Assembly (NCBI GenBank): GCA_017619935.1
Contig: JAFZRJ010000002.1
Coordinates: forward strand, 1-35,433
Source of the DNA: Muribaculaceae bacterium
GTDB lineage: Bacteria > Bacteroidota > Bacteroidia > Bacteroidales > Muribaculaceae
Reading direction: 5' to 3'
DNA: 35,433 nucleotides
Below are positions 14,505-26,741 of this stretch, one piece after another. The notes under the pieces are model-generated. The model worked only from the letters and a program-made list of their open reading frames with translations, was not told where the DNA came from and did not search any database. Made by a program: the position numbers and the translations under genes. Every line of letters starts with the position of its first letter. The first letter of the stretch is position 1.

Positions 14505-14653
14505 TTTTGGGTTTTCTATTCAACACAATTCGTTATTAAATTTTTCAACGAGTCTCTTATAGTGAATAGATTGCATTTATTTAACAACCTCTCTGCAATC
14601 GCGGCTGCACTATAGTGATTCTAAACATCACACAACTTTAATTATTAGAAACA
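14505..14653 (+). promoter_or_regulatory. Structured leader before rpsD; possible S4 control element
   Basis: The 149-base gap contains several self-complementary blocks. CTATTCA (14516-14522) pairs with TGAATAG (14563-14569). GATTGCA (14569-14575) pairs with TGCAATC (14594-14600). CACTATAGTG (14608-14617) is a perfect 10-base palindrome, and TATAGTGA occurs twice (14558-14565 and 14611-14618), which would allow alternative pairings. No TAnnTTTG promoter is seen. S4 is a known autoregulator in E. coli and Bacillus, so an S4-binding leader is a reasonable inference, but no known S4 motif was recognised. Confidence 0.45.
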
Positions 14654-18382: not shown

Positions 18383-19666
18383 ATGGAATTTAAGAGAGTT
18401 GTGGTAACCGGCTTGGGAGCCATCACTCCTCTGGGTAACGACGTTGAAACCACGTGGAACAACGCCGTTGCTGGTGTGAGTGGCGCAGGCCCCATTACCC
18501 GTTTTAATACAGAGCTGTTCAAGACGCAATTTGCATGCGAGGTGAAAAACTTTGACATGTCGATGTGCTTGCTGAATCCCGACGACCGCGCCGAAATGAA
18601 GGAGGTGAGGCGTATGGATTTGTACACACAATATGCGTTGGCTTCGGCCAAGCAAGCCATCACCGACAGCCATCTGACCGACGAAGGCATTGTGCGCGAT
18701 GAAATCGGTGTGATTTTCGCATCGGGCATCGGTGGCTTGCACACCTTCGAAGTGGATGCCGGCAACTATGCCAAGCACGAAGAAGATGGCCCTCGTTTCA
18801 ACCCGTTTTTCATCCCCACGATGATTGCCGACATCGCTGCAGGCCACATCTCTATGAAATATGGTTTCCGTGGACCAAACTTCGGTATCGTAGCGGCATG
18901 CGCTACCTCGACCAACGCCATGATCGACGCTTTCAACTATGTGCGCTTGGGCAAGGCTAGAGCCATCGTTACAGGAGGTGCCGAAGCACCCATTTTCCCG
19001 ACTGGCGTGGGCGGTTTCAACTCGATGCGTGCCATCTCGACCCGCAACGATGAGCCCACGACGGCTTCGCGCCCATTCAGCGCGTCTCGCGATGGCTTTG
19101 TGATGGGCGAGGGTGCCGTGTGCCTCATCTTTGAGGAACTGGAACATGCCTTGGCTCGCGGTGCCAAAATTTATGGCGAGGTGATAGGTGGAGGCTTGAG
19201 TGCTGACGCTTACCACATCACCGCCACTCATCCCGAAGGCCTCGGTGCCAAGCTCGTGATGGAGCGTGCCCTGGCCGATGCCGGCATCAAGCCCGAAGAG
19301 GTAGACTATGTGAACGTGCACGGCACGTCGACTCCCGTGGGCGACCCCAGCGAGGCTAAGGCTATCAAAGCCGTATTCGGCGACCACGCATACAAGATGA
19401 ACATCAGCTCCACCAAGTCAATGACCGGCCATATGCTGGGTGCGACTGGAGCCATGGAGGCTTTGTTCTGTCTGCTTGCTTGCCAAAACGGTATTGTGCC
19501 TCCCACCATCAATCATGCCCCCGGTGACGAGGATGATACCATCGATTATAAAATGAACTTCACGTTCAACAAGGCCCAGAAGCGCGAGGTGAACATTGCT
19601 TTGTCCAACACCTTCGGCTTCGGTGGCCACAACGCCAGCATTATAGTCAAGAAATACAAGGGATAA
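18383..19666 (+). CDS. fabF: 3-oxoacyl-[acyl-carrier-protein] synthase II
   Basis: Condensing enzyme that elongates acyl-ACP with malonyl-ACP. It is 427 residues with a thiolase fold. The catalytic triad is visible: C173 in VAACATSTNAM, H313 in VNVHGTSTPVGD and H350 in SMTGHMLGATGAMEA. The N-terminus RVVVTGLGAITPLGNDVETT and the ending NTFGFGGHNASIIVKK are typical of FabF rather than FabH. It follows acpP by 109 bases that contain a terminator-like hairpin and precedes rnc by 13 bases. Confidence 0.98.
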   Translation: MEFKRVVVTGLGAITPLGNDVETTWNNAVAGVSGAGPITRFNTELFKTQFACEVKNFDMSMCLLNPDDRAEMKEVRRMDLYTQYALASAKQAITDSHLTDEGIVRDEIGVIFASGIGGLHTFEVDAGNYAKHEEDGPRFNPFFIPTMIADIAAGHISMKYGFRGPNFGIVAACATSTNAMIDAFNYVRLGKARAIVTGGAEAPIFPTGVGGFNSMRAISTRNDEPTTASRPFSASRDGFVMGEGAVCLIFEELEHALARGAKIYGEVIGGGLSADAYHITATHPEGLGAKLVMERALADAGIKPEEVDYVNVHGTSTPVGDPSEAKAIKAVFGDHAYKMNISSTKSMTGHMLGATGAMEALFCLLACQNGIVPPTINHAPGDEDDTIDYKMNFTFNKAQKREVNIALSNTFGFGGHNASIIVKKYKG

Positions 19667-19679
19667 TACCAAGCGACAT

Positions 19680-20456
19680 ATGGTGTTGTCCAATGTCATA
19701 TCACTCGTAAGGCTCCTTTTTGTAAAGGATAAGGAGCTTTACGTTTTTATTCATGGCATAACTGGTTTCTATCCTAGCAACATCGAATTGTACAAACTGG
19801 CCATGGTGCACCGCAGCAGCCCGGTGAAACTGGCCGATGGCCACTGGGCCAACAATGAACGCCTGGAATTTTTGGGCGACGCTGTGCTCGACACTGTTGT
19901 GGCCGATTACCTTTACAGCATTTTCCCCGACAAGCGCGAAGGCTTTCTCACCAGCACGCGGGCCAAGATTGTGCAACGCGAGAGTTTGAACCGCATCGGC
20001 ACTCTGCTGCGCATCGATGCCCATGTGCGCGCATCTTCGCATTCCACATCACACAATAGTTACATCTGTGGCAATGCCGTCGAAGCCCTCGTGGGTGCCA
20101 TCTACCTGGACCAAGGCTACAAGCGTGTGCGGCGTTTTATTATCGACCGCATTGTGAAGCAGCATTTTGACTTGGACAGTCTTGTCCACAACGAATCCAA
20201 TTTCAAGTCACGCTTGATTGAGTGGACACAAAAATATCGTGTCGCCATTGATTATGAGCTCGTCGATACCATGAACGATGAGTCGGGAAATCCCATCTTC
20301 AAGACGGCCGTGATGCTGGGCGGTATCTTTGCCGGTGACGGCACCGGTTACAGCAAAAAAGAGTCGCATCAGGCCGCCAGCAAACAAGTGCTTGATAAAC
20401 TTGACAACGACCCCGTGTTCAAGCAACAGGTCCTTTCAACCGTGGAAACAGTTTAG
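19680..20456 (+). CDS. rnc: Ribonuclease III
   Basis: Double-strand-specific endonuclease that processes rRNA precursors and regulatory RNAs. It is 258 residues. The RNase III domain contains the signature NERLEFLGDAVLDTVVADYL, with E63 and D67 as metal ligands. The second catalytic segment reads GNAVEALVGAIYLDQG: E135 is present but the position that is Asp in E. coli (D114) is Asn here (N132). A double-stranded-RNA-binding domain follows from about residue 180 (FKSRLIEWTQK to the end). The first 25 residues are an extension before the usual start of the domain. Confidence 0.96.
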   Translation: MVLSNVISLVRLLFVKDKELYVFIHGITGFYPSNIELYKLAMVHRSSPVKLADGHWANNERLEFLGDAVLDTVVADYLYSIFPDKREGFLTSTRAKIVQRESLNRIGTLLRIDAHVRASSHSTSHNSYICGNAVEALVGAIYLDQGYKRVRRFIIDRIVKQHFDLDSLVHNESNFKSRLIEWTQKYRVAIDYELVDTMNDESGNPIFKTAVMLGGIFAGDGTGYSKKESHQAASKQVLDKLDNDPVFKQQVLSTVETV

Positions 20457-20510
20457 GCTAAATCGTTTAGTCATTGGTCCTACACCCCAATTGAAATAGA
20501 CTAGAAAAGA

Positions 20511-21359
20511 ATGAAGTATTTTATTGTAGATGCTTTTACCGACAAACCATTTGGGGGTAATCCGGCCGGGATTGTGTTTCTTGAAAAAGACGGTGTTTTC
20601 CCATGTGATGAGAGGATGCGCCTAATAGCGTCTGAATTTCAGTTTTCGGAGACGGCATTCGTACAACGAAACGGCCCGCTCGAATTCACTGTGCGCTATT
20701 TCACTCCATGTGGCGAGGTGAATCTGTGTGGCCATGCTACGATAGCTATCTTTGGGTTGTTGTGGCAAAAAGGTATTGTTTCCGATAATGCGACTTGTCG
20801 TCTTCACACATTGGCAGGTGACCTAGAGGTGGTGACTGGCGAGACGGTAATGATGCAGATGGCGGAACCTCGTATACTGAAAGCACACGTCGATGTTAAG
20901 CAGCTGCACCACATTATGGCTGGAAATGGAGTCAAGGAATGGCCTGCTATGCCGATAGAAATTGTCTCTACGGGTTTGCCCGACATCATGATGCCTGTCG
21001 TTTCGGTTGAGGCATTGAACCGCCTCCAACCCGATATGGATGCCCTGGCTGAAATGAGTCGCCAGCTGTCGGTGATTGGCGTTCACGCTTTTGCTCTCAG
21101 TGATGATGGCTATACAGCCCACGTACGCAATTTTGCTCCACTCTATGGCATCAGGGAGGAGTCGGCGACTGGTACTGCCAATGCCGCCTTGACCTATTAC
21201 TTGCTTCACTACGGCATTATCGCCGACAATGCTTCGTGCCGTTTCATTCAAGGTGAGGTCATGGGACGGCCATCAGTTGTGGCTACACGAATCCTGAATG
21301 GTGTCATTTACGTTGGAGGCAAAATCTGTGTTATAGCTCAAGGCACACTTCTTGTGTAG
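20511..21359 (+). CDS. PhzF-family isomerase-like protein
   Basis: Member of the PhzF/YddE family, two-domain proteins related in fold to diaminopimelate epimerase; most members have no assigned substrate. It is 282 residues, the usual size. Key blocks are VDAFTDKPFGGNPAGIVFLE at the N-terminus, FQFSETAFV with the catalytic glutamate at E47, VNLCGHATIA, and REESATGTANAAL in the second half. It starts 54 bases after rnc with no clear promoter. There is no phenazine pathway nearby, so a housekeeping or detoxifying isomerase role is likelier (inference). Confidence 0.9.
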   Translation: MKYFIVDAFTDKPFGGNPAGIVFLEKDGVFPCDERMRLIASEFQFSETAFVQRNGPLEFTVRYFTPCGEVNLCGHATIAIFGLLWQKGIVSDNATCRLHTLAGDLEVVTGETVMMQMAEPRILKAHVDVKQLHHIMAGNGVKEWPAMPIEIVSTGLPDIMMPVVSVEALNRLQPDMDALAEMSRQLSVIGVHAFALSDDGYTAHVRNFAPLYGIREESATGTANAALTYYLLHYGIIADNASCRFIQGEVMGRPSVVATRILNGVIYVGGKICVIAQGTLLV

Positions 21360-21397
21360 TCAGCGCGTGCTGGAATGAAATAATTTGATTCGTTTAT

Positions 21398-21429
21398 TTT
21401 GCTGGAAGGCAGGATTTTTTATACCTTTG
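21398..21429 (+). promoter_or_regulatory. Consensus Bacteroidota promoter of the reverse transcriptase gene
   Basis: TTTG (21398-21401) and TACCTTTG (21422-21429) are 20 bases apart, a perfect match to both elements of the phylum consensus. Transcription should begin near 21433, giving a leader of about 15 bases before the ATG at 21450. Confidence 0.8.
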
Positions 21430-21449
21430 TGTTCTATTCAGTCAATGGC

Positions 21450-22721
21450 ATGAGTTGCTGCGATGAAATAACGAAACGTTTTTTTGAACACAAGCGCTGG
21501 GAAAAAGCGTTGGATGTTGGCGTGGACAAAGGCATCAGCAAAGCGATGTTGCGTGATATGGCGAAGCCTGAGGTTCGCATCTCGTTGTATCGGGCCATCA
21601 TTCAAGGGGGATATACAATCTCGCCTCCTCGCACGGCATTGATTCCCAAAGACTCATGCGGAAACTATCGCATGGTTTATATCAATCAACCGGCCGACCG
21701 TGTCATATTGAGTATTGCCAATGACTTGTTGTTTGACCTCACCCCCGACATGATACATCCGTCATGTAAGTCTTATATCTCCGGTATCGGCTGCGGGAAA
21801 GTGGTGCAAGAAGTGTCGCGTCGCATCACGGGTATGCCCTCTACAACAGGTGTGGTGGGATGGAAAAGCGACCTGTCGAAATACTTTGACTCGGTGGCTA
21901 TCGAACACATAGACCGAGCCTTTGACGTTGTAGAGCATCGCTATGGCAAGTCGGCTCTCATCGACATGATTCGCAACTATTACCACGACGATACTTATAT
22001 GGACGAGCATGGAGAGGAGGCCCACAAGTACATGTCGCTGCGACAGGGTTGCGCCGTGTCGTCGTGGCTGGCCGACGTGTTGCTGCATGATATAGATGAG
22101 CGACTGTCGGGTTTGCAGGGCTACTACGTTCGTTATTGCGACGATATGCTTTACGTTGGACCTGATTATGAGCAAGCCATGCAAGTGCTCATTGCCGACC
22201 TTGACAAGATGGGGCTGCGCCTCAACCCCAAAAAGATTGAGATGTTGTCGCCCGAGCGATGGTTTAGTTTTTTGGGTTATTCTATCAAGGGCCAAATGAT
22301 TTCGTTGTCATCGAGCAGGGTGAAGAAGTTCCAGCAGAGCATTGACCTCGTTACATTGAAATCAAGGAGTATGGCTCATGCCATTACCCGTGTGAACAGA
22401 TTTCTCTACAAAGGTAACGGGGAGTTCAGTTGGAGCACGCTGGTGCTGCCTGTCATGAACGTAGCACAAGACCTGGACACGCTCAACGCCTATGTGATGG
22501 ATGCCATCCGTGCCTCCAAAACGGGTAAGCGGCGCATAGGTGGGCTGGGCTATGACCGTGCGGGCAACGATGGCTGCATCGTGCGGGGTAGAGGCCGGCA
22601 CGTCTGTGCCAACCGGGCTAAAACGCCCCAAGTTCTGGAGCGATACCGTTCGCTCACCTGTATGCGTAAAGCGATGAAGACGTCACGGGCGGCGTACGAC
22701 ACCATTGTGAGACAGATGTAA
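21450..22721 (+). CDS. Stand-alone reverse transcriptase with YCDD active site
   Basis: RNA-directed DNA polymerase of bacterial type. The frame is open from 21399, but the promoter at 21398-21429 places the start at 21450 (MSCCDEITKRF), giving 423 residues. The fingers and palm blocks are complete. RT1-2 read PRTALIPKDSCGNYRMVY, then PADRVILSIANDLLF. Motif A is DLSKYFDSVAIEHID with D141. The motif-4 equivalent is LRQGCAVSSWLADVLL (197-212), where group II intron enzymes have QGSPLSP. Motif C is YCDD (229-232), then MGLRLNPKKIEML and WFSFLGYSIKG. A thumb-like region is followed by a basic Gly/Arg-rich tail (about 350-423). No intron maturase, endonuclease, Cas1 or protease domain is present. 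Function unknown; two unrecognised genes follow. Confidence 0.9.
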   Translation: MSCCDEITKRFFEHKRWEKALDVGVDKGISKAMLRDMAKPEVRISLYRAIIQGGYTISPPRTALIPKDSCGNYRMVYINQPADRVILSIANDLLFDLTPDMIHPSCKSYISGIGCGKVVQEVSRRITGMPSTTGVVGWKSDLSKYFDSVAIEHIDRAFDVVEHRYGKSALIDMIRNYYHDDTYMDEHGEEAHKYMSLRQGCAVSSWLADVLLHDIDERLSGLQGYYVRYCDDMLYVGPDYEQAMQVLIADLDKMGLRLNPKKIEMLSPERWFSFLGYSIKGQMISLSSSRVKKFQQSIDLVTLKSRSMAHAITRVNRFLYKGNGEFSWSTLVLPVMNVAQDLDTLNAYVMDAIRASKTGKRRIGGLGYDRAGNDGCIVRGRGRHVCANRAKTPQVLERYRSLTCMRKAMKTSRAAYDTIVRQM

Positions 22722-22771
22722 AATGATTAAAACCGCGCACACGGCAATATGGGATGTGAAGAGTGCATTCA

Positions 22772-22793
22772 TTCACCAAACAAGTTTGGTGAA
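22772..22793. repeat. 22-base palindrome between the reverse transcriptase and downstream genes
   Basis: TTCACCAAAC (22772-22781) and GTTTGGTGAA (22784-22793) are perfect inverted copies around a 2-base centre. There is no T-run, so it is more like an operator or RNA hairpin than a terminator. A further GTGAA at 22756-22760 could compete for pairing with the left arm. It lies 17 bases before the ATG at 22811. Confidence 0.7.
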
Positions 22794-22810
22794 ATCAAAC
22801 CATTAAAGAC

Positions 22811-23347
22811 ATGTGCCAAACTCTGGGCATCCCATTTTTTGTGATGAATATCATTTCATTCATGGGAATGAAAGAAAACGACATATTTACCAGCACCCTT
22901 GATGCGGTGAAAAATGGCGCAGAGGTTACCGTATCACTCACCGACCACAGCTTGGCAGTCGATGGCAAGGTGCTCATTGACCATGGACGTTGGGAAGGCG
23001 AGCTGGGCGTTGCTGTCACCGGAGAAGCCTCGGCGCTGACGATGATTGAGGACGCTTATGCCTCATACGAGAGCAGCGTGCCTGAGTATGCCGGCAACGA
23101 CCATAGCCGTTGGTTTTATGCCCGCAGCGAGGATGAACTGAGCGACAAGGAACTGGTCATGGGTCAAGACCGCCCTTTGGCGCGATGCCGCTTGGAACTG
23201 CTGGTGCTGTCGTTCATACTGAACCGTTCGCTGACGCGTTGCGGGCCCAGTATGCGAGGCAAATGGTTCTGGCAGAGTGACAAGTACCCACGACTGGTGA
23301 TTTTGACAGAGTGGCTGATGGATGATAGTAATAAATCAAATATATAA
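22811..23347 (+). CDS. Unrecognised protein downstream of the reverse transcriptase
   Basis: I do not recognise this 178-residue protein. From the ATG at 22811 the first 20 residues are hydrophobic and poorly like the rest; in-frame ATGs at 22844, 22862 and 22868 are alternatives, and a start at MKENDIFTSTLDAVKNGAEV (22868) would give a purely soluble protein. The middle is acidic (EDELSDKELVMGQD), followed by a helix ARCRLELLVLSFILNRSL and the Trp/Lys-rich segment MRGKWFWQSDKYPRLVI. There is no signal for export with certainty and no catalytic motif I can name. It lies 89 bases after the reverse transcriptase and 18 before the next gene, so the three may be co-transcribed. Confidence 0.75.
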   Translation: MCQTLGIPFFVMNIISFMGMKENDIFTSTLDAVKNGAEVTVSLTDHSLAVDGKVLIDHGRWEGELGVAVTGEASALTMIEDAYASYESSVPEYAGNDHSRWFYARSEDELSDKELVMGQDRPLARCRLELLVLSFILNRSLTRCGPSMRGKWFWQSDKYPRLVILTEWLMDDSNKSNI

Positions 23348-23365
23348 ACTTTAAAAATTAGTATT

Positions 23366-24145
23366 ATGGCTTTAGAAAGTATTCTGAAAAGTATCTTTTC
23401 AAAATTGATGGGAAACAAGCCGACTTCGGCCGGCGAGATGATTAAAGATGTCATCAACGAAGTGATTAATCCCGACCAGCCTCAGCAGCCGTCGGCACAG
23501 GCTCAACAACCCCGTTACGATGAGGTGGAGCAAAGCATCGCTCAGGATGGCTATGTGTGGCAAAGCAGGCTGTGGCGTCGCCATGTGATGGCGCAGATGT
23601 TCCGTTTGCTGCATGGCAAGCACGACCTGCCCATGAGCGAGGAGAACTACGACAAGTGCGTGGGTCGTCGCAGGGTTGGTTATTCGTGGCGGATGCTGAT
23701 TGACGAACTATATGCTCAGTCAAGACTGTGGCTTGACGACAAGGAGCAATTTGCTGAGCGTAACCGTTGGTTCAACAAGGCGGTGGTTGAAGATATGGCT
23801 CGCCAACTCAACAGTGCCGATGGTACGGAACTGTTGCGTAGACTCCAGAAGGTTGAAACACCCGAGCAACTGTTTAAATCCATCAGGAATGTTGACTGGG
23901 ACAGGGGCATGAAGAGCGAGGCCTGGAAAAACGCCTATAAGGGTGCCGGTGCCTACTTCACCATGAAGAACCTCATTTTGTTCCACAACTGCAACGTACA
24001 TTTGGAAACAGGCGAAGTGCTTGACCGCGACGCATCGTTCAAGTATTTGACCGACTTGAACAACAACCCGCTGACTACCGGCCACGACCTGTTTGCCGTG
24101 ATGATGAAACTCATCAACGACAACAACTTTGACTGGCGCCACTGA
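23366..24145 (+). CDS. Unrecognised protein with Gln/Pro linker
   Basis: I do not recognise this 259-residue protein. Visible parts are an N-terminal amphipathic helix (MALESILKSIFSKLMG), a second helix (AGEMIKDVINEVI), a Gln/Pro/Ala-rich linker at about residues 38-50, and a large Trp/Arg-rich soluble domain (SRLWRRHVMAQMFRLLHGKH, RRRVGYSWRMLIDELY, then a Leu/Asn-rich end). There are no membrane spans or signal peptide. It follows the preceding unknown gene by 18 bases and is convergent with the hydrolase gene on the - strand. No nuclease, helicase or toxin motif was seen. Confidence 0.78.
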   Translation: MALESILKSIFSKLMGNKPTSAGEMIKDVINEVINPDQPQQPSAQAQQPRYDEVEQSIAQDGYVWQSRLWRRHVMAQMFRLLHGKHDLPMSEENYDKCVGRRRVGYSWRMLIDELYAQSRLWLDDKEQFAERNRWFNKAVVEDMARQLNSADGTELLRRLQKVETPEQLFKSIRNVDWDRGMKSEAWKNAYKGAGAYFTMKNLILFHNCNVHLETGEVLDRDASFKYLTDLNNNPLTTGHDLFAVMMKLINDNNFDWRH

Positions 24146-24177
24146 TGTGGCCTGAATAATTGAGCCTCCTCTTGCCC

Positions 24178-25104
24178 TTATAATGACCAGCGAAGCTTGG
24201 CGATAATGGGGTAGTGGTCACTTGGGGTGTGGTGACGGTATTTGGTCACCTTCACCTCGGCGGGCCCATTGTGTTGGTTACTGGATGCCTCGTCATTGAC
24301 GGGTGTCCAGTAACCATTTGTTAGTACGGCATACTTATCGACAACAAACTGCGATGTGACGAAAATGTGGTCGATGCGGCTCTCGGTTTTGGCATTGGGG
24401 TCAAAATCAATGAAAGTACCATTCTCGGCGAAGCGTAGTCGCGCGTTGGTATAGCAGTCGCGTAGCAGTCCGCTATGACTGAAAATGGTGTAAATTTCAT
24501 CGTTCTGATCCACGTTGAAGTCGCCAGTGAGCACCGAGGGCGCCTCTTGTGCAATAGAGCGGATTCGACTCATGACCAGTTTGGCCCCTTCGCGTCGCGC
24601 CGTCACGCCTATGTGATCCATGTGCAAGTTGAAATGGTAGAAGGTGAAGTCAGTGCCACGCACCTTGAATTTGCCCCACGAGCATACACGCCGGCATGCG
24701 GCATCCCAGCCGAAGCTTACTTGTTCGGGCGTCTCGCTGAGCCAGAAAGTGCCTTCGTCCAGCAGTTCCAGACGGTCTTTCTTGTAGAAGATGCAGGAAT
24801 ATTCCCCTTCCTTGTCGCCGTCGTCACGTCCACGACCGGTAAAGCCGTAGCCGTCGAGTTGTGCCAGCATGTCTATCAGTTGCTTGTGGGTCACCTCCTG
24901 CGCTCCGAAAGCGTCGGGGGCTTCAAAGTTCATCTGGTCACACATTACCTTGCAGCGCGTGTCCCATATTTCGCCCTTTTCCTCATCGCTGGTTACATAG
25001 AGGCGGATGTTGTAGGAGCCAATCGTCAGTTCTTGCTGTTGTGCCCATGTCGCTGTCGTGAGGGCGACCAGCAGCAGTGCAAATAGTGCAGTTCGTTTCA
25101 TCAT
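24178..25104 (-). CDS. Exported endonuclease/exonuclease/phosphatase-family hydrolase
   Basis: Metal-dependent hydrolase of the DNase I/sphingomyelinase fold. It is 308 residues with a signal peptide at 1-21 (MMKRTALFALLLVALTTATWA), so it is probably periplasmic. Family motifs appear in order: LTIGSYNIRL, DAFGAQEVTH with the metal-binding Glu, FYHFNLHMDHIG, SVLTGDFNVDQ, SRIDHIFVTS and the terminal HTPSDHYPIIAKL with the catalytic His. Substrate could be nucleic acid, phospholipid or a phosphorylated sugar; nothing nearby decides. It is transcribed on its own from a promoter about 25 bases upstream. Confidence 0.92.
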   Translation of the reverse strand: MMKRTALFALLLVALTTATWAQQQELTIGSYNIRLYVTSDEEKGEIWDTRCKVMCDQMNFEAPDAFGAQEVTHKQLIDMLAQLDGYGFTGRGRDDGDKEGEYSCIFYKKDRLELLDEGTFWLSETPEQVSFGWDAACRRVCSWGKFKVRGTDFTFYHFNLHMDHIGVTARREGAKLVMSRIRSIAQEAPSVLTGDFNVDQNDEIYTIFSHSGLLRDCYTNARLRFAENGTFIDFDPNAKTESRIDHIFVTSQFVVDKYAVLTNGYWTPVNDEASSNQHNGPAEVKVTKYRHHTPSDHYPIIAKLRWSL

Positions 25105-25127
25105 TTAGTCTGTTAGAATCATTATCG

Positions 25128-25135
25128 CAAAAGTA
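25128..25135 (-). promoter_or_regulatory. -7 element of the exported hydrolase gene
   Basis: On the - strand TACTTTTG matches TAnnTTTG exactly and lies 23 bases before the ATG at 25104. No good -33 element is found at the expected distance. Confidence 0.5.
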
Positions 25136-25367
25136 CAAATAATTTTTTAGATAATGTGTAATGAGCCTGATTTTGATGGTTGACGCATGGTGGTGTTCAC
25201 TTTTTTGTCGGAATCGATAGGAGAGTAGGGTATTGGTTGGTCGGTATTTTTCGGTCGATGGTCGTGTGTGAGGCGGTTTTGGTCGAGAAAAGCGGCTTGA
25301 AAGGGTAAAAATCATTAAACGGGCTCACTTTTTGTAGGTCTAAAAGACAAACAAACGAGAAATTTAT

Positions 25368-25375
25368 TATTTTTG
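25368..25375 (+). promoter_or_regulatory. -7 element of the Ser/Thr-rich exported protein gene
   Basis: TATTTTTG matches TAnnTTTG and is 25 bases before the ATG at 25401. No TTTG is found 19-21 bases upstream; the nearest (25331) is too far, so the -33 element is weak. Confidence 0.5.
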
Positions 25376-25400
25376 TGACACCATTTAATATCGAAGCGTT

Positions 25401-26741
25401 ATGAAGACTACAAGAAACATGATGATGAGCTTCATGCTCGCGGGAAGCATGATCCTGGGTGCTTCCTTCGCCTCGGCACAAAGTATGTCGGGTCGTCAAA
25501 GACCAACAACCAGTAACAGTAGAACAACGTCGGTGACCAGTTCATCGTCGAGTGACAATAAACGCAGTGCAGCCGCTCAGAGCAACGTGCGCACAGCTAC
25601 CGAGAAGCCGAGTAGCCAGGCCGCCGCATCGTCGGAGCGCCAGGTGAACACTAACCGCAACACGAGCACCACATCACGCTCAAGTGTGGGCAGTGCATCG
25701 ACTCAGACTCAGCGAGGCAGTACCGTGACCGCCCGTCCCAGCACAGGCACAACCACCACATCTCGTCCTAGTACTGTGACGGCACGTCCGGCAACCACCA
25801 CTCCTTCGGCTACGAACTCAAGCTCGGGCACGATCAACAACACTCGTCCCAGCACCGGTTCAGCATCCACCGCTCGTTCATCGTCGGGTGCCTCAGTGAC
25901 CACAGCACGTTCTGCCTCTGGCAGCGCAATGGCCGACACCCGCTCCATCACGGAGACTACAGTGCGTCCCGAATCTGAAAAGGTTTCGACCGGTAATGAT
26001 GATGTGGTAAAAGGAAGTGTACGCAACAGCCGTCCTAGCACTGGTGGAAAGGTCGATAATGGGAAGGTGGATAATGGAAAGAGGCCCGGTGGCAGTGACA
26101 GGCCCAATGGAAATGGCGGAAACGGCAATCTCAGCGATCGTGGAGGCAAGCGCCCTAGTGGCAACGGAACCCGTCCACCTGTGGCAAATCCTAACAACAA
26201 TCCTTATCGCCACGATTTCCGCAACAACTACGATAGAGGAAACTGGAGTCGCCCACTGCCTCCTCCCACCCGTCCCTATCGTCCTGCTCCCATCCGCTAT
26301 ACTCGCCCTGTGATCCCCGCTCACTATCGCCCCTATGCTGGAGCACCTGTGATCGATCGCATCCTGGGAATCAGTTTTGGCTCGCTCTTTGACATCTCGC
26401 TCAACTATCTGTACACGAACAACTACTATATCGATGGCTATGACAGCGATGTGATTTACCTGCGCGATGTGCGTATGTTGAACCTCCTCTGGCCCGATGT
26501 GATGCTCTGCTACGATAGTTACGGACGTCTGGCTAATGCACAGTTCATCATCTCTACTGGCTATGCCGACCGGAGCCGCTACAACCGCCTCTATCACGAC
26601 TTGTGCGCAGTCTATGGCCCACCCATCAGCGTGGATGTAAACGGTGCAACTTGGTTCGGAGGCAACACCACTGGCTACGTCACTTTGACCGCAGCCATGA
26701 ACGGAGCAAGATTCTACACAACCCTCTACGTGGGTTACTAG
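25401..26741 (+). CDS. Exported Ser/Thr-rich low-complexity protein with C-terminal domain
   Basis: I cannot assign a function. The 446-residue protein begins with a signal peptide (about residues 1-27, ending ASFASAQ). Residues 28-210 are almost only Ser, Thr, Ala, Arg and Pro, with degenerate repeats of the RPSTG/ARPS type. Residues 210-260 are Gly/Asn/Lys-rich with a KVDNG tandem repeat, and residues 275-315 are Pro/Arg/Tyr-rich. The last 125 residues look folded (GISFGSLFDISLNYLY, then DSDVIYLRDVRMLNLLWPDV), rich in Tyr and beta-prone. A flexible surface or periplasmic stalk carrying a small domain is plausible (inference). No T9SS sorting domain or lipobox is visible. Confidence 0.85.
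   Translation: MKTTRNMMMSFMLAGSMILGASFASAQSMSGRQRPTTSNSRTTSVTSSSSSDNKRSAAAQSNVRTATEKPSSQAAASSERQVNTNRNTSTTSRSSVGSASTQTQRGSTVTARPSTGTTTTSRPSTVTARPATTTPSATNSSSGTINNTRPSTGSASTARSSSGASVTTARSASGSAMADTRSITETTVRPESEKVSTGNDDVVKGSVRNSRPSTGGKVDNGKVDNGKRPGGSDRPNGNGGNGNLSDRGGKRPSGNGTRPPVANPNNNPYRHDFRNNYDRGNWSRPLPPPTRPYRPAPIRYTRPVIPAHYRPYAGAPVIDRILGISFGSLFDISLNYLYTNNYYIDGYDSDVIYLRDVRMLNLLWPDVMLCYDSYGRLANAQFIISTGYADRSRYNRLYHDLCAVYGPPISVDVNGATWFGGNTTGYVTLTAAMNGARFYTTLYVGY

What the first reader, a model, noticed from the sequence alone, without database searches (positions are those of the whole stretch)
21450..22721. Stand-alone reverse transcriptase with no known partner RNA or domain
The enzyme has all palm motifs and should be catalytically competent (D141 in motif A, YCDD motif C). 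It nonetheless lacks intron maturase, endonuclease, Cas1 or retron context. The motif-4 block QGCAVSSWLAD differs from the QGSPLSP of group II introns and from retrons, and there is a basic Gly/Arg-rich tail. The gene is expressed from a consensus promoter and shows no flanking mobile-element ends, which suggests a retained cellular function. It is my best candidate for an undescribed system.
Basis: partly seen in the sequence, partly recalled or inferred. Interest (0 to 1): 0.75.

Follow-up and report, generated by a model that had tools for sequence, protein, structure and literature searches.

The report
Reverse transcriptase with pseudoknot RNA array
The supposedly lone reverse transcriptase is one part of a compact antiphage-type gene cassette that also holds two small proteins and a pseudoknotted RNA, and in related loci, mostly viral, that RNA is often repeated head-to-tail with a different hairpin each time.

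Summary
The reverse transcriptase (RT) is real and intact (21450-22721) but not stand-alone. It is a UG27-type defence-associated RT (PADLOC RT_UG27, 3e-189), followed by PADLOC's RT-associated families RTas346 and RTas337. In 122 related loci, 80 of them viral contigs, RTas346 is found in 115 and RTas337 in 114; in 13 the RT is fused to RTas346.

The missed partner RNA lies after the RT: one roughly 110-nt unit at 22733-22841. Relatives carry tandem, diverged units about 170 nt apart that fill the gap to RTas346 (inferred 1 to about 8-10 units). Each has a small hairpin whose loop pairs with a strand after UAAAG (a pseudoknot), an enclosing helix and a variable hairpin; partner-swap and covariation tests support this. 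Among 297 family genomes the RNA model matched six, all with the RT. Rfam has no such family.

By analogy with DRT2, DRT3, DRT9 and DRT10, the RNAs most likely bind the RT and template cDNA that acts with the two proteins in phage conflict; this is inferred. The RT family is known. I found no report of the RNA array, but the key 2022 survey was not readable.

The parts
21422..21429 (+). TACCTTTG, Bacteroidota-type promoter box (TAnnTTTG, consensus recalled) 28 nt before the RT start codon
   Evidence: a box within 200 nt upstream in 6 of 7 clade members, 0.07 expected per 200 nt.
21450..22721 (+). UG27 reverse transcriptase, 423 aa
   Evidence: RVT_1 2.4e-19; PADLOC RT_UG27 3.4e-189 over 5-423; next best RT_UG26 5.7e-37, RT_UG17 1.5e-31.
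22733..22841 (+). Pseudoknotted RNA unit (P1 hairpin, P2, P3, pseudoknot, then a T-run)
   Evidence: model R1 47.1 bits, E = 1e-5, but the window unit is one of the 35 the model was built from; 12 of 27 predicted pairs have a compensatory change among 6 sequences; fold z = -2.9.
22733..22744 (+). P1 mini-hairpin CCG-CGCACA-CGG; loop GCACA (22737-22741) is the 5' pseudoknot strand
22749..22757 (+). 5' strand of enclosing helix P2, pairs with 22827-22835
   Evidence: in 86 units P2 has mean duplex energy -16.7 against -8.4 kcal/mol with swapped partners.
22772..22793 (+). P3 variable inner hairpin TTCACCAAAC-AA-GTTTGGTGAA
   Evidence: compensatory changes in 7 of 8 P3 pairs in the clade; for coordinates.
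22794..22808 (+). Conserved segment AUCRA-N5-UAAAG
   Evidence: columns 168, 178, 179, 181 and 182 the same in all 35 aligned units.
22812..22816 (+). 3' pseudoknot strand UGUGC, pairs with the P1 loop GCACA
   Evidence: 89 of 189 dereplicated cores find their partner at this spacing, mean 21.6 (max 28) with swapped partners.
22868..23347 (+). RTas346-family protein, about 159 aa (ORF as listed starts at 22811)
   Evidence: RTas346 3e-33; AlphaFold2 mean pLDDT 91.8, no PDB fold match with E <= 0.001. Start inferred from relatives' N-termini.
23366..24145 (+). RTas337-family protein, 259 aa; lacks the N-terminal CPxCG stretch of many phage relatives
   Evidence: RTas337 3.4e-50; AlphaFold2 mean pLDDT 84.8, no PDB fold match with E <= 0.001; for N-termini.

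Best explanation
This is a compact chromosomal member of the UG27 class of defence-associated reverse transcriptase systems: RT, then a pseudoknotted RNA unit, then two small partner proteins. Shown by sequence: the cassette, the RNA structure, the tandem arrays in relatives, and the linkage of the RNA to this RT family. Inferred: the RNA is bound by the RT and a segment of each unit is copied into cDNA, as in DRT2, DRT3a, DRT9 and DRT10; the cDNA, with RTas346 and RTas337, then acts in phage-host or phage-phage conflict. RTas346 probably works in contact with the RT, since the two are one protein in 13 loci. The window's clade looks like a phage-derived cassette kept on host chromosomes and reduced to one or two short RNA units.
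For: Family and partners: RT_UG27, RTas346, RTas337; the same three in phage relative L058; RT and RTas346 in one protein in L031. RTas346 in 115 and RTas337 in 114 of 122 loci. RNA: strict descriptor 242 hits against 4.2 in Markov shuffles, 203 of them in the 106 loci it was not designed on; loop/strand partners 89 of 189 against 21.6 swapped; covariance model 238 matches at E <= 1 in 88 loci (35 built the model), 237 in the RT's sense, 70 of 88 loci; first unit within 15 nt of the RT stop in 55 of 70. Linkage: RNA in 6 of 297 family genomes, all six with the RT. Nearest other DRT profiles are UG26, UG17 (= DRT10) and DRT9; the Class 2 UG systems investigated so far use a cis-encoded ncRNA template (PMC13174585, passages; PMC12632851). 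That UG27 is Class 2 is inferred from profile kinship.
Against: No RNA expression, cDNA or defence data. A DRT10-style A-B-A' pattern beside the core was not enriched (63 of 88 against 58.1 in controls). 12 of 88 loci gave no unit by any of three methods; three of these end at or just after the RT. 100 of 189 motif cores found no loop partner under strict rules, and 38 of 86 P2 helices were not beyond the 5% tail of swapped pairs. The two Oscillospiraceae RTs (L144, L145) show neither accessory nor RNA. The two partners are not SLATT proteins by Pfam.
Confidence: 0.6

Rival explanations
1. Retron-like array: each unit is a small msr-msd-like element, and the variable P3 hairpin of each unit is copied, so one RT makes a set of different hairpin DNAs.
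For: P3 is conserved in shape rather than sequence (86 of 86 units z < -2; compensatory changes), as recalled for retron msd regions; P2 resembles recalled retron a1/a2 repeats; units differ within one array.
Against: RT scores far below retron models (PADLOC Ec107-like 34 bits against 627 for UG27; NCBIfam St85 32.6 bits against a 235 cut-off). The retron branching motif was not searched for systematically.
Confidence: 0.2
2. The RNA array is not a template: the units regulate a toxic partner protein, like the tandem pseudoknot antitoxin RNAs of type III toxin-antitoxin systems.
For: Tandem pseudoknots directly before a small protein gene is the type III layout as recalled.
Against: Units are about 170 nt and strongly diverged; the array usually starts right after the RT stop and the RNA model matched only RT-bearing genomes; RTas346 gives no ToxN-like match in Pfam or by fold.
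Confidence: 0.1
3. The systems serve phages (offence or superinfection control) rather than host defence; the chromosomal copy is a capture or remnant. This concerns the role and can hold together with the best explanation.
For: At least 100 viral contigs encode the RT, 80 kept by the cap, and the window's clade lies among mostly viral rows.
Against: Does not by itself explain an intact RT, maintained RNA pairing and both proteins in the chromosomal clade.
Confidence: 0.25

Closest known systems
UG27 reverse transcriptases with RTas346 and RTas337 (PADLOC-DB; named, as recalled, after the UG/Abi survey of Mestre et al. 2022, which could not be read)
   Same: RT matches the UG27 profile end to end and both following genes match the associated families.
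   Different: I found no RNA described for UG27. The window's clade has one or two short RNA units and an RTas337 without the N-terminal CPxCG stretch.
DRT10 (UG17), PMC12632851
   Same: Related RT by profile (third best); cis-encoded structured RNA.
   Different: DRT10 has one 137-nt RNA upstream of a SLATT gene and an A-B-A' template; here diverged pseudoknot units, inferred up to about 8-10, lie mostly right downstream of the RT, with other partner proteins and no enriched A-B-A' pattern.
DRT9 and DRT2
   Same: Class 2 UG RTs with a cis ncRNA (passages).
   Different: Poly-uridine or looped template; weaker RT matches (Drt9 5.7e-21, Drt2 4.8e-12); no array known to me.
Type III toxin-antitoxin RNA repeats (recalled)
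   Same: Tandem pseudoknot units next to a protein gene.
   Different: Those repeats are short and near identical, with no RT (recalled).

Membership tests
UG27 DRT (PADLOC) | RT matches RT_UG27 far above other RT models | tested here: met
   627 bits, next 125 bits.
UG27 DRT (PADLOC) | RTas346 and RTas337 beside the RT | tested here: met
   found in 115 and 114 of 122 loci.
UG27 DRT (PADLOC) | Antiphage activity | not testable with these tools
   Needs phage assays.
Class 2 UG systems | Conserved structured RNA encoded in cis with the RT | tested here: met
   not found in 12 of 88 loci.
Class 2 UG systems | RNA templates tandem-repeat cDNA | not testable with these tools
   Needs RIP-seq and cDNA sequencing.
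DRT10 (UG17) | RT best match UG17 | tested here: not met
   UG17 107.7 bits against UG27 627.
DRT10 (UG17) | A-B-A' template pattern next to a stem-loop | tested here: inconclusive
   63 of 88 against 58.1 in controls, tested only in the segment after P3.
DRT10 (UG17) | SLATT protein partner | tested here: not met
   The two adjacent proteins have no Pfam match at E <= 1; among relatives no Pfam family reaches more than 3 of 51 or 1 of 47 members. Genes further off were not tested for SLATT.
Group II intron | Intron RNA beside the RT and maturase-level score | tested here: not met
   No intron at Rfam gathering score in the window; NCBIfam group II RT 87.9 bits against a 300 cut-off.
Retron | RT of retron type | tested here: not met
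Diversity-generating retroelement | Template/variable repeat pair near the RT | tested here: not met
   one weak 33-nt repeat family in 19000-26000.
CRISPR-associated RT | cas genes or repeat array near the RT | tested here: inconclusive
   CRISPR-RT models score weakly; no repeat array in 19000-26000; no cas scan of the window was run.
Type III toxin-antitoxin | Toxin of the ToxN/AbiQ type | tested here: not met
   No such match in Pfam scans of the two proteins and relatives or in the PDB fold searches.

The most novel reading that the evidence does not exclude
One RT served by an array of different RNAs: each unit offers its own variable hairpin or segment as template, so a single enzyme writes a set of distinct DNAs, a multi-template immune or anti-immune weapon carried largely by viruses (apparently of Bacteroidales) and captured in reduced form by a host lineage.
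Probability: 0.3. Interest if true: 0.92.

Novelty: new variant of a known kind. Interest (0 to 1): 0.76.

Why it matters
For the Class 2 UG systems worked out so far, finding the RNA was the key step. Here the RNA of a class for which I found no mechanism in print is located, its pseudoknot is supported by covariation, and it comes as an array of different units rather than one. That makes the class directly testable (which units are bound and copied, and into what) and asks why one RT would need several diverged RNAs. The compact one-unit chromosomal version is a convenient minimal system for the bench.

Tried and rejected
Stand-alone RT: rejected. Intron, DGR and retron identity: rejected. 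One chromosomal place: not supported. Of six clade members compared, only L015 shares an adjacent flanking gene with the window (82% identity); L017 and L112 share two neighbouring genes, on opposite sides of the cassette (flank families of five members). Empty-site test: failed, because among 30 phzF loci with about 1.5 kb flanks only the window's own has rnc and fabF beside phzF; the longer regions were fetched but not analysed. DRT10-like A-B-A' pattern: not enriched. Terminator after the last unit: a T-run of 5 or more precedes RTas346 in 19 of 62 loci, against 5 of 61 before RTas337 and 1 of 61 before the RT, so enriched but not general. Folds of the partner proteins: confident models, no PDB match with E <= 0.001; a hit to an RNA ligase family in 1 of 47 RTas346 members (E = 0.0007) is treated as chance. 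Captured foreign sequence in P3: one array (L058) searched in the phage collection hit one record, which is another UG27 array; other arrays were not tried. A weak second hit in the window's genome (22.8 bits with R1, 23.5 with R2) was judged by eye not to be a unit. The first genome and viral scans with the single RT found nothing; the alignment query did.

Rows dropped: one search kept 80 of 100 relatives. Of the 58 loci, L110, L111, L113-L115, L117, L129, L130, L136, L140 and L141 were left out as copies of genome loci already held, L135, L146 and L149 as fragments, L150-L167 as other RTs. One search was given 88 of the 122 loci, near-duplicates left out. Two of 88 units were dropped before the P2/P3 test.

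Full report
What is there. The gene at 21450-22721 encodes an intact 423-aa reverse transcriptase. D141, D231 and D232 are the same in 70 representatives (under 90% identity) of 120 relatives. PADLOC places it in RT_UG27 at 3.4e-189 (627 bits); the next profiles, UG26 and UG17, score 125 and 108 bits. The next two genes match RTas346 (3e-33) and RTas337 (3.4e-50), families that PADLOC lists under DRT. So the RT is not stand-alone.

How widespread. With the window's own genome counted, 13 of 397 genomes of the family and 3 of 393 of the order have it at E <= 1e-30. Two phage records have it, no plasmid at 1e-20. At least 100 viral contigs encode a relative, 80 kept by the cap, and 58 genome-contig loci, 18 of them other RTs. 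I analysed 122 UG27 loci: 80 viral, 26 genome contigs, 16 others. RTas346 was found in 115 and RTas337 in 114. L018, L039, L099 and L127 lack both on contigs that end within about 160 bases of the RT stop; two Oscillospiraceae loci (L144, L145) lack both at this sensitivity. In 13 loci the RT and RTas346 are one open reading frame; the L031 protein matches RT_UG27 over 1-425 and RTas346 over 426-527. The fused RTs form one group in the tree (11 rows, 100/100).

The RNA. Where RTas346 is a separate downstream gene (100 loci), the gap after the RT is 500-1650 nt in 88 and under 300 nt in 9. In L021, L022 and L024 it holds no sense ORF of 70 aa; some other gaps do hold one, for example 328 aa in L020 and 165 aa in L027, whose conservation I did not test. 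The gaps are filled by head-to-tail units. Each has a 3-bp hairpin (P1) with a 6-nt loop, an enclosing helix (P2), a variable hairpin (P3) flanked by UUYA and AUCRA, the motif UAAAG, three bases, and a 5-nt strand that pairs with the P1 loop. To avoid circularity I collected cores by sequence motif alone (520; 189 after dereplication) and asked whether the strand after UAAAG finds a complementary P1 loop upstream. At a 3-nt spacing 89 of 189 do, against a mean of 21.6 and a maximum of 28 with strands swapped between units. At the seven other spacings the counts are 2-18 against swapped means of 4.2-7.5. In 35 aligned units P1 and the pseudoknot have 118 cells changed on both sides, against 35.8 in shuffles; these units were chosen for pairing, so their 100% pairing is not evidence. 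P2 strands pair better with their own partner (mean -16.7 kcal/mol, 86 units) than with swapped ones (-8.4), 48 of 86 beyond the 5% tail, and all 86 P3 segments fold with z below -2 against base shuffles. In the window's own clade 12 of 27 predicted pairs have a compensatory change among six sequences.

Array architecture. The covariance model R1 found 238 matches at E <= 1 in 88 loci (1.09 Mb), 237 in the RT's sense: 208 between RT and RTas346, 20 downstream of RTas337, 6 between RT and RTas337 where RTas346 is fused or not found, 3 elsewhere. The 35 units behind the model match by construction. 70 of 88 loci had a match; the second model (E <= 0.1) and the descriptor raise this to 76. Of the 12 others, three end at or within 184 nt of the RT stop. 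Of 167 spacings between successive matches, 87 are 148-215 nt and 47 are 301-379 nt, as if one unit had been missed; 33 are longer. The first unit starts within 15 nt of the RT stop in 55 of 70 loci. For 62 loci with a separate RTas346, filling missed places by length gives 1 to 8 units in 59; L062 gets about 10, L096 a doubtful 17 (its gap is 2965 nt and mostly unmatched), and L017 none because the script set its RTas346 start inside the unit. Some first and last units look alike across loci by eye, so they may be lasting, distinct elements rather than fresh copies; this was not tested.

Linkage and novelty. In 297 genomes of the family R1 matched 6 at E <= 0.01, all with the RT. G017, which carries the RT, was in that sample and was missed; G133 is in the equal-sized sample and was probably missed too. 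Rfam gave nothing for the RNA: one unrelated gathering-level match in the window, and one sub-threshold snoRNA match outside the array in three phage loci. Literature searches gave no paper on this system by title or abstract. One search, for RTas337 and RTas346, was swamped by an unrelated acronym (20 of 1,156 papers listed) and decides nothing. The survey of Mestre et al. 2022 is not held, so prior mention of the RNA cannot be excluded; I recall it as reporting one UG system in human gut viruses, which may be this one. Passages of PMC8008677 on gut phages concern DGRs only.

Context of the window copy. Flanking genes are chromosomal: acyl carrier protein, FabF, RNase III and PhzF on one side, an endonuclease/exonuclease/phosphatase and an M16 peptidase on the other. 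Its seven-row clade (100/100) lies among mostly viral rows under midpoint rooting, but the fork above it is weakly resolved (85/87). Other members lie beside an OPT transporter (L015), an MgsA-type ATPase (L016), a DinB-type polymerase (L017), a C1 peptidase-like gene (L017, L112), or a TonB receptor on one side and a polyvalent-protein gene of mobile-element type on the other (L019). I infer capture from phage-type systems and reduction to one or two short RNA units and an RTas337 without its CPxCG start.

Mechanism. Class 2 UG systems investigated so far use a cis RNA as template (PMC13174585, passages; PMC12632851, passages, section 5 parts 1-2 and section 10; PMC12483538, passages; review PMC13213688, first of two parts, which tables DRT1-9 only). 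The same is the best guess here: the RT binds the units and copies part of each, and RTas346 and RTas337 act with the product. The template is not identified; an A-B-A' pattern after P3 was not enriched. A possible C-terminal priming residue is Y416 (Tyr in 66 of 70, Phe in 4), untested. Whether the product is a repeat, a hairpin DNA or something else is open.

Noticed in passing
window 14569-14607: S4-Bacteroidia ribosomal protein leader RNA, above the Rfam gathering score.
   Followed up: no
L030, L031, L032, L034, L036, L046, L047, L049, L050, L057, L061, L118, L125: RT and RTas346 form one open reading frame; in several of these the RNA units lie before or after RTas337.
   Followed up: partly
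L032:4733-5082, L036:9293-9870, L118:5748-6282, L121:10426-10589, L142:3784-4300: RNA units downstream of RTas337; L118, L121 and L142 also have units before it, so some systems have two arrays.
   Followed up: partly
L144 and L145 (Oscillospiraceae): UG27 RTs (42% identity to the window) in Bacillota with no detectable RTas346, RTas337 or RNA unit.
   Followed up: no
L037 and L143: Rearranged loci: the best matches of both accessory genes (L037) or of RTas337 (L143) lie upstream of the RT.
   Followed up: no
L028:8001-9257 (PQ571274.1, phage BS-TP1): The UG27 RT is annotated as 'tail protein' in the deposited record, and the roughly 1.35-kb RNA array after it carries no feature.
   Followed up: yes
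L017, about 100 nt after the RT stop: A second TAnnTTTG box just before the RNA unit, so the RNA may have its own promoter there.
   Followed up: no
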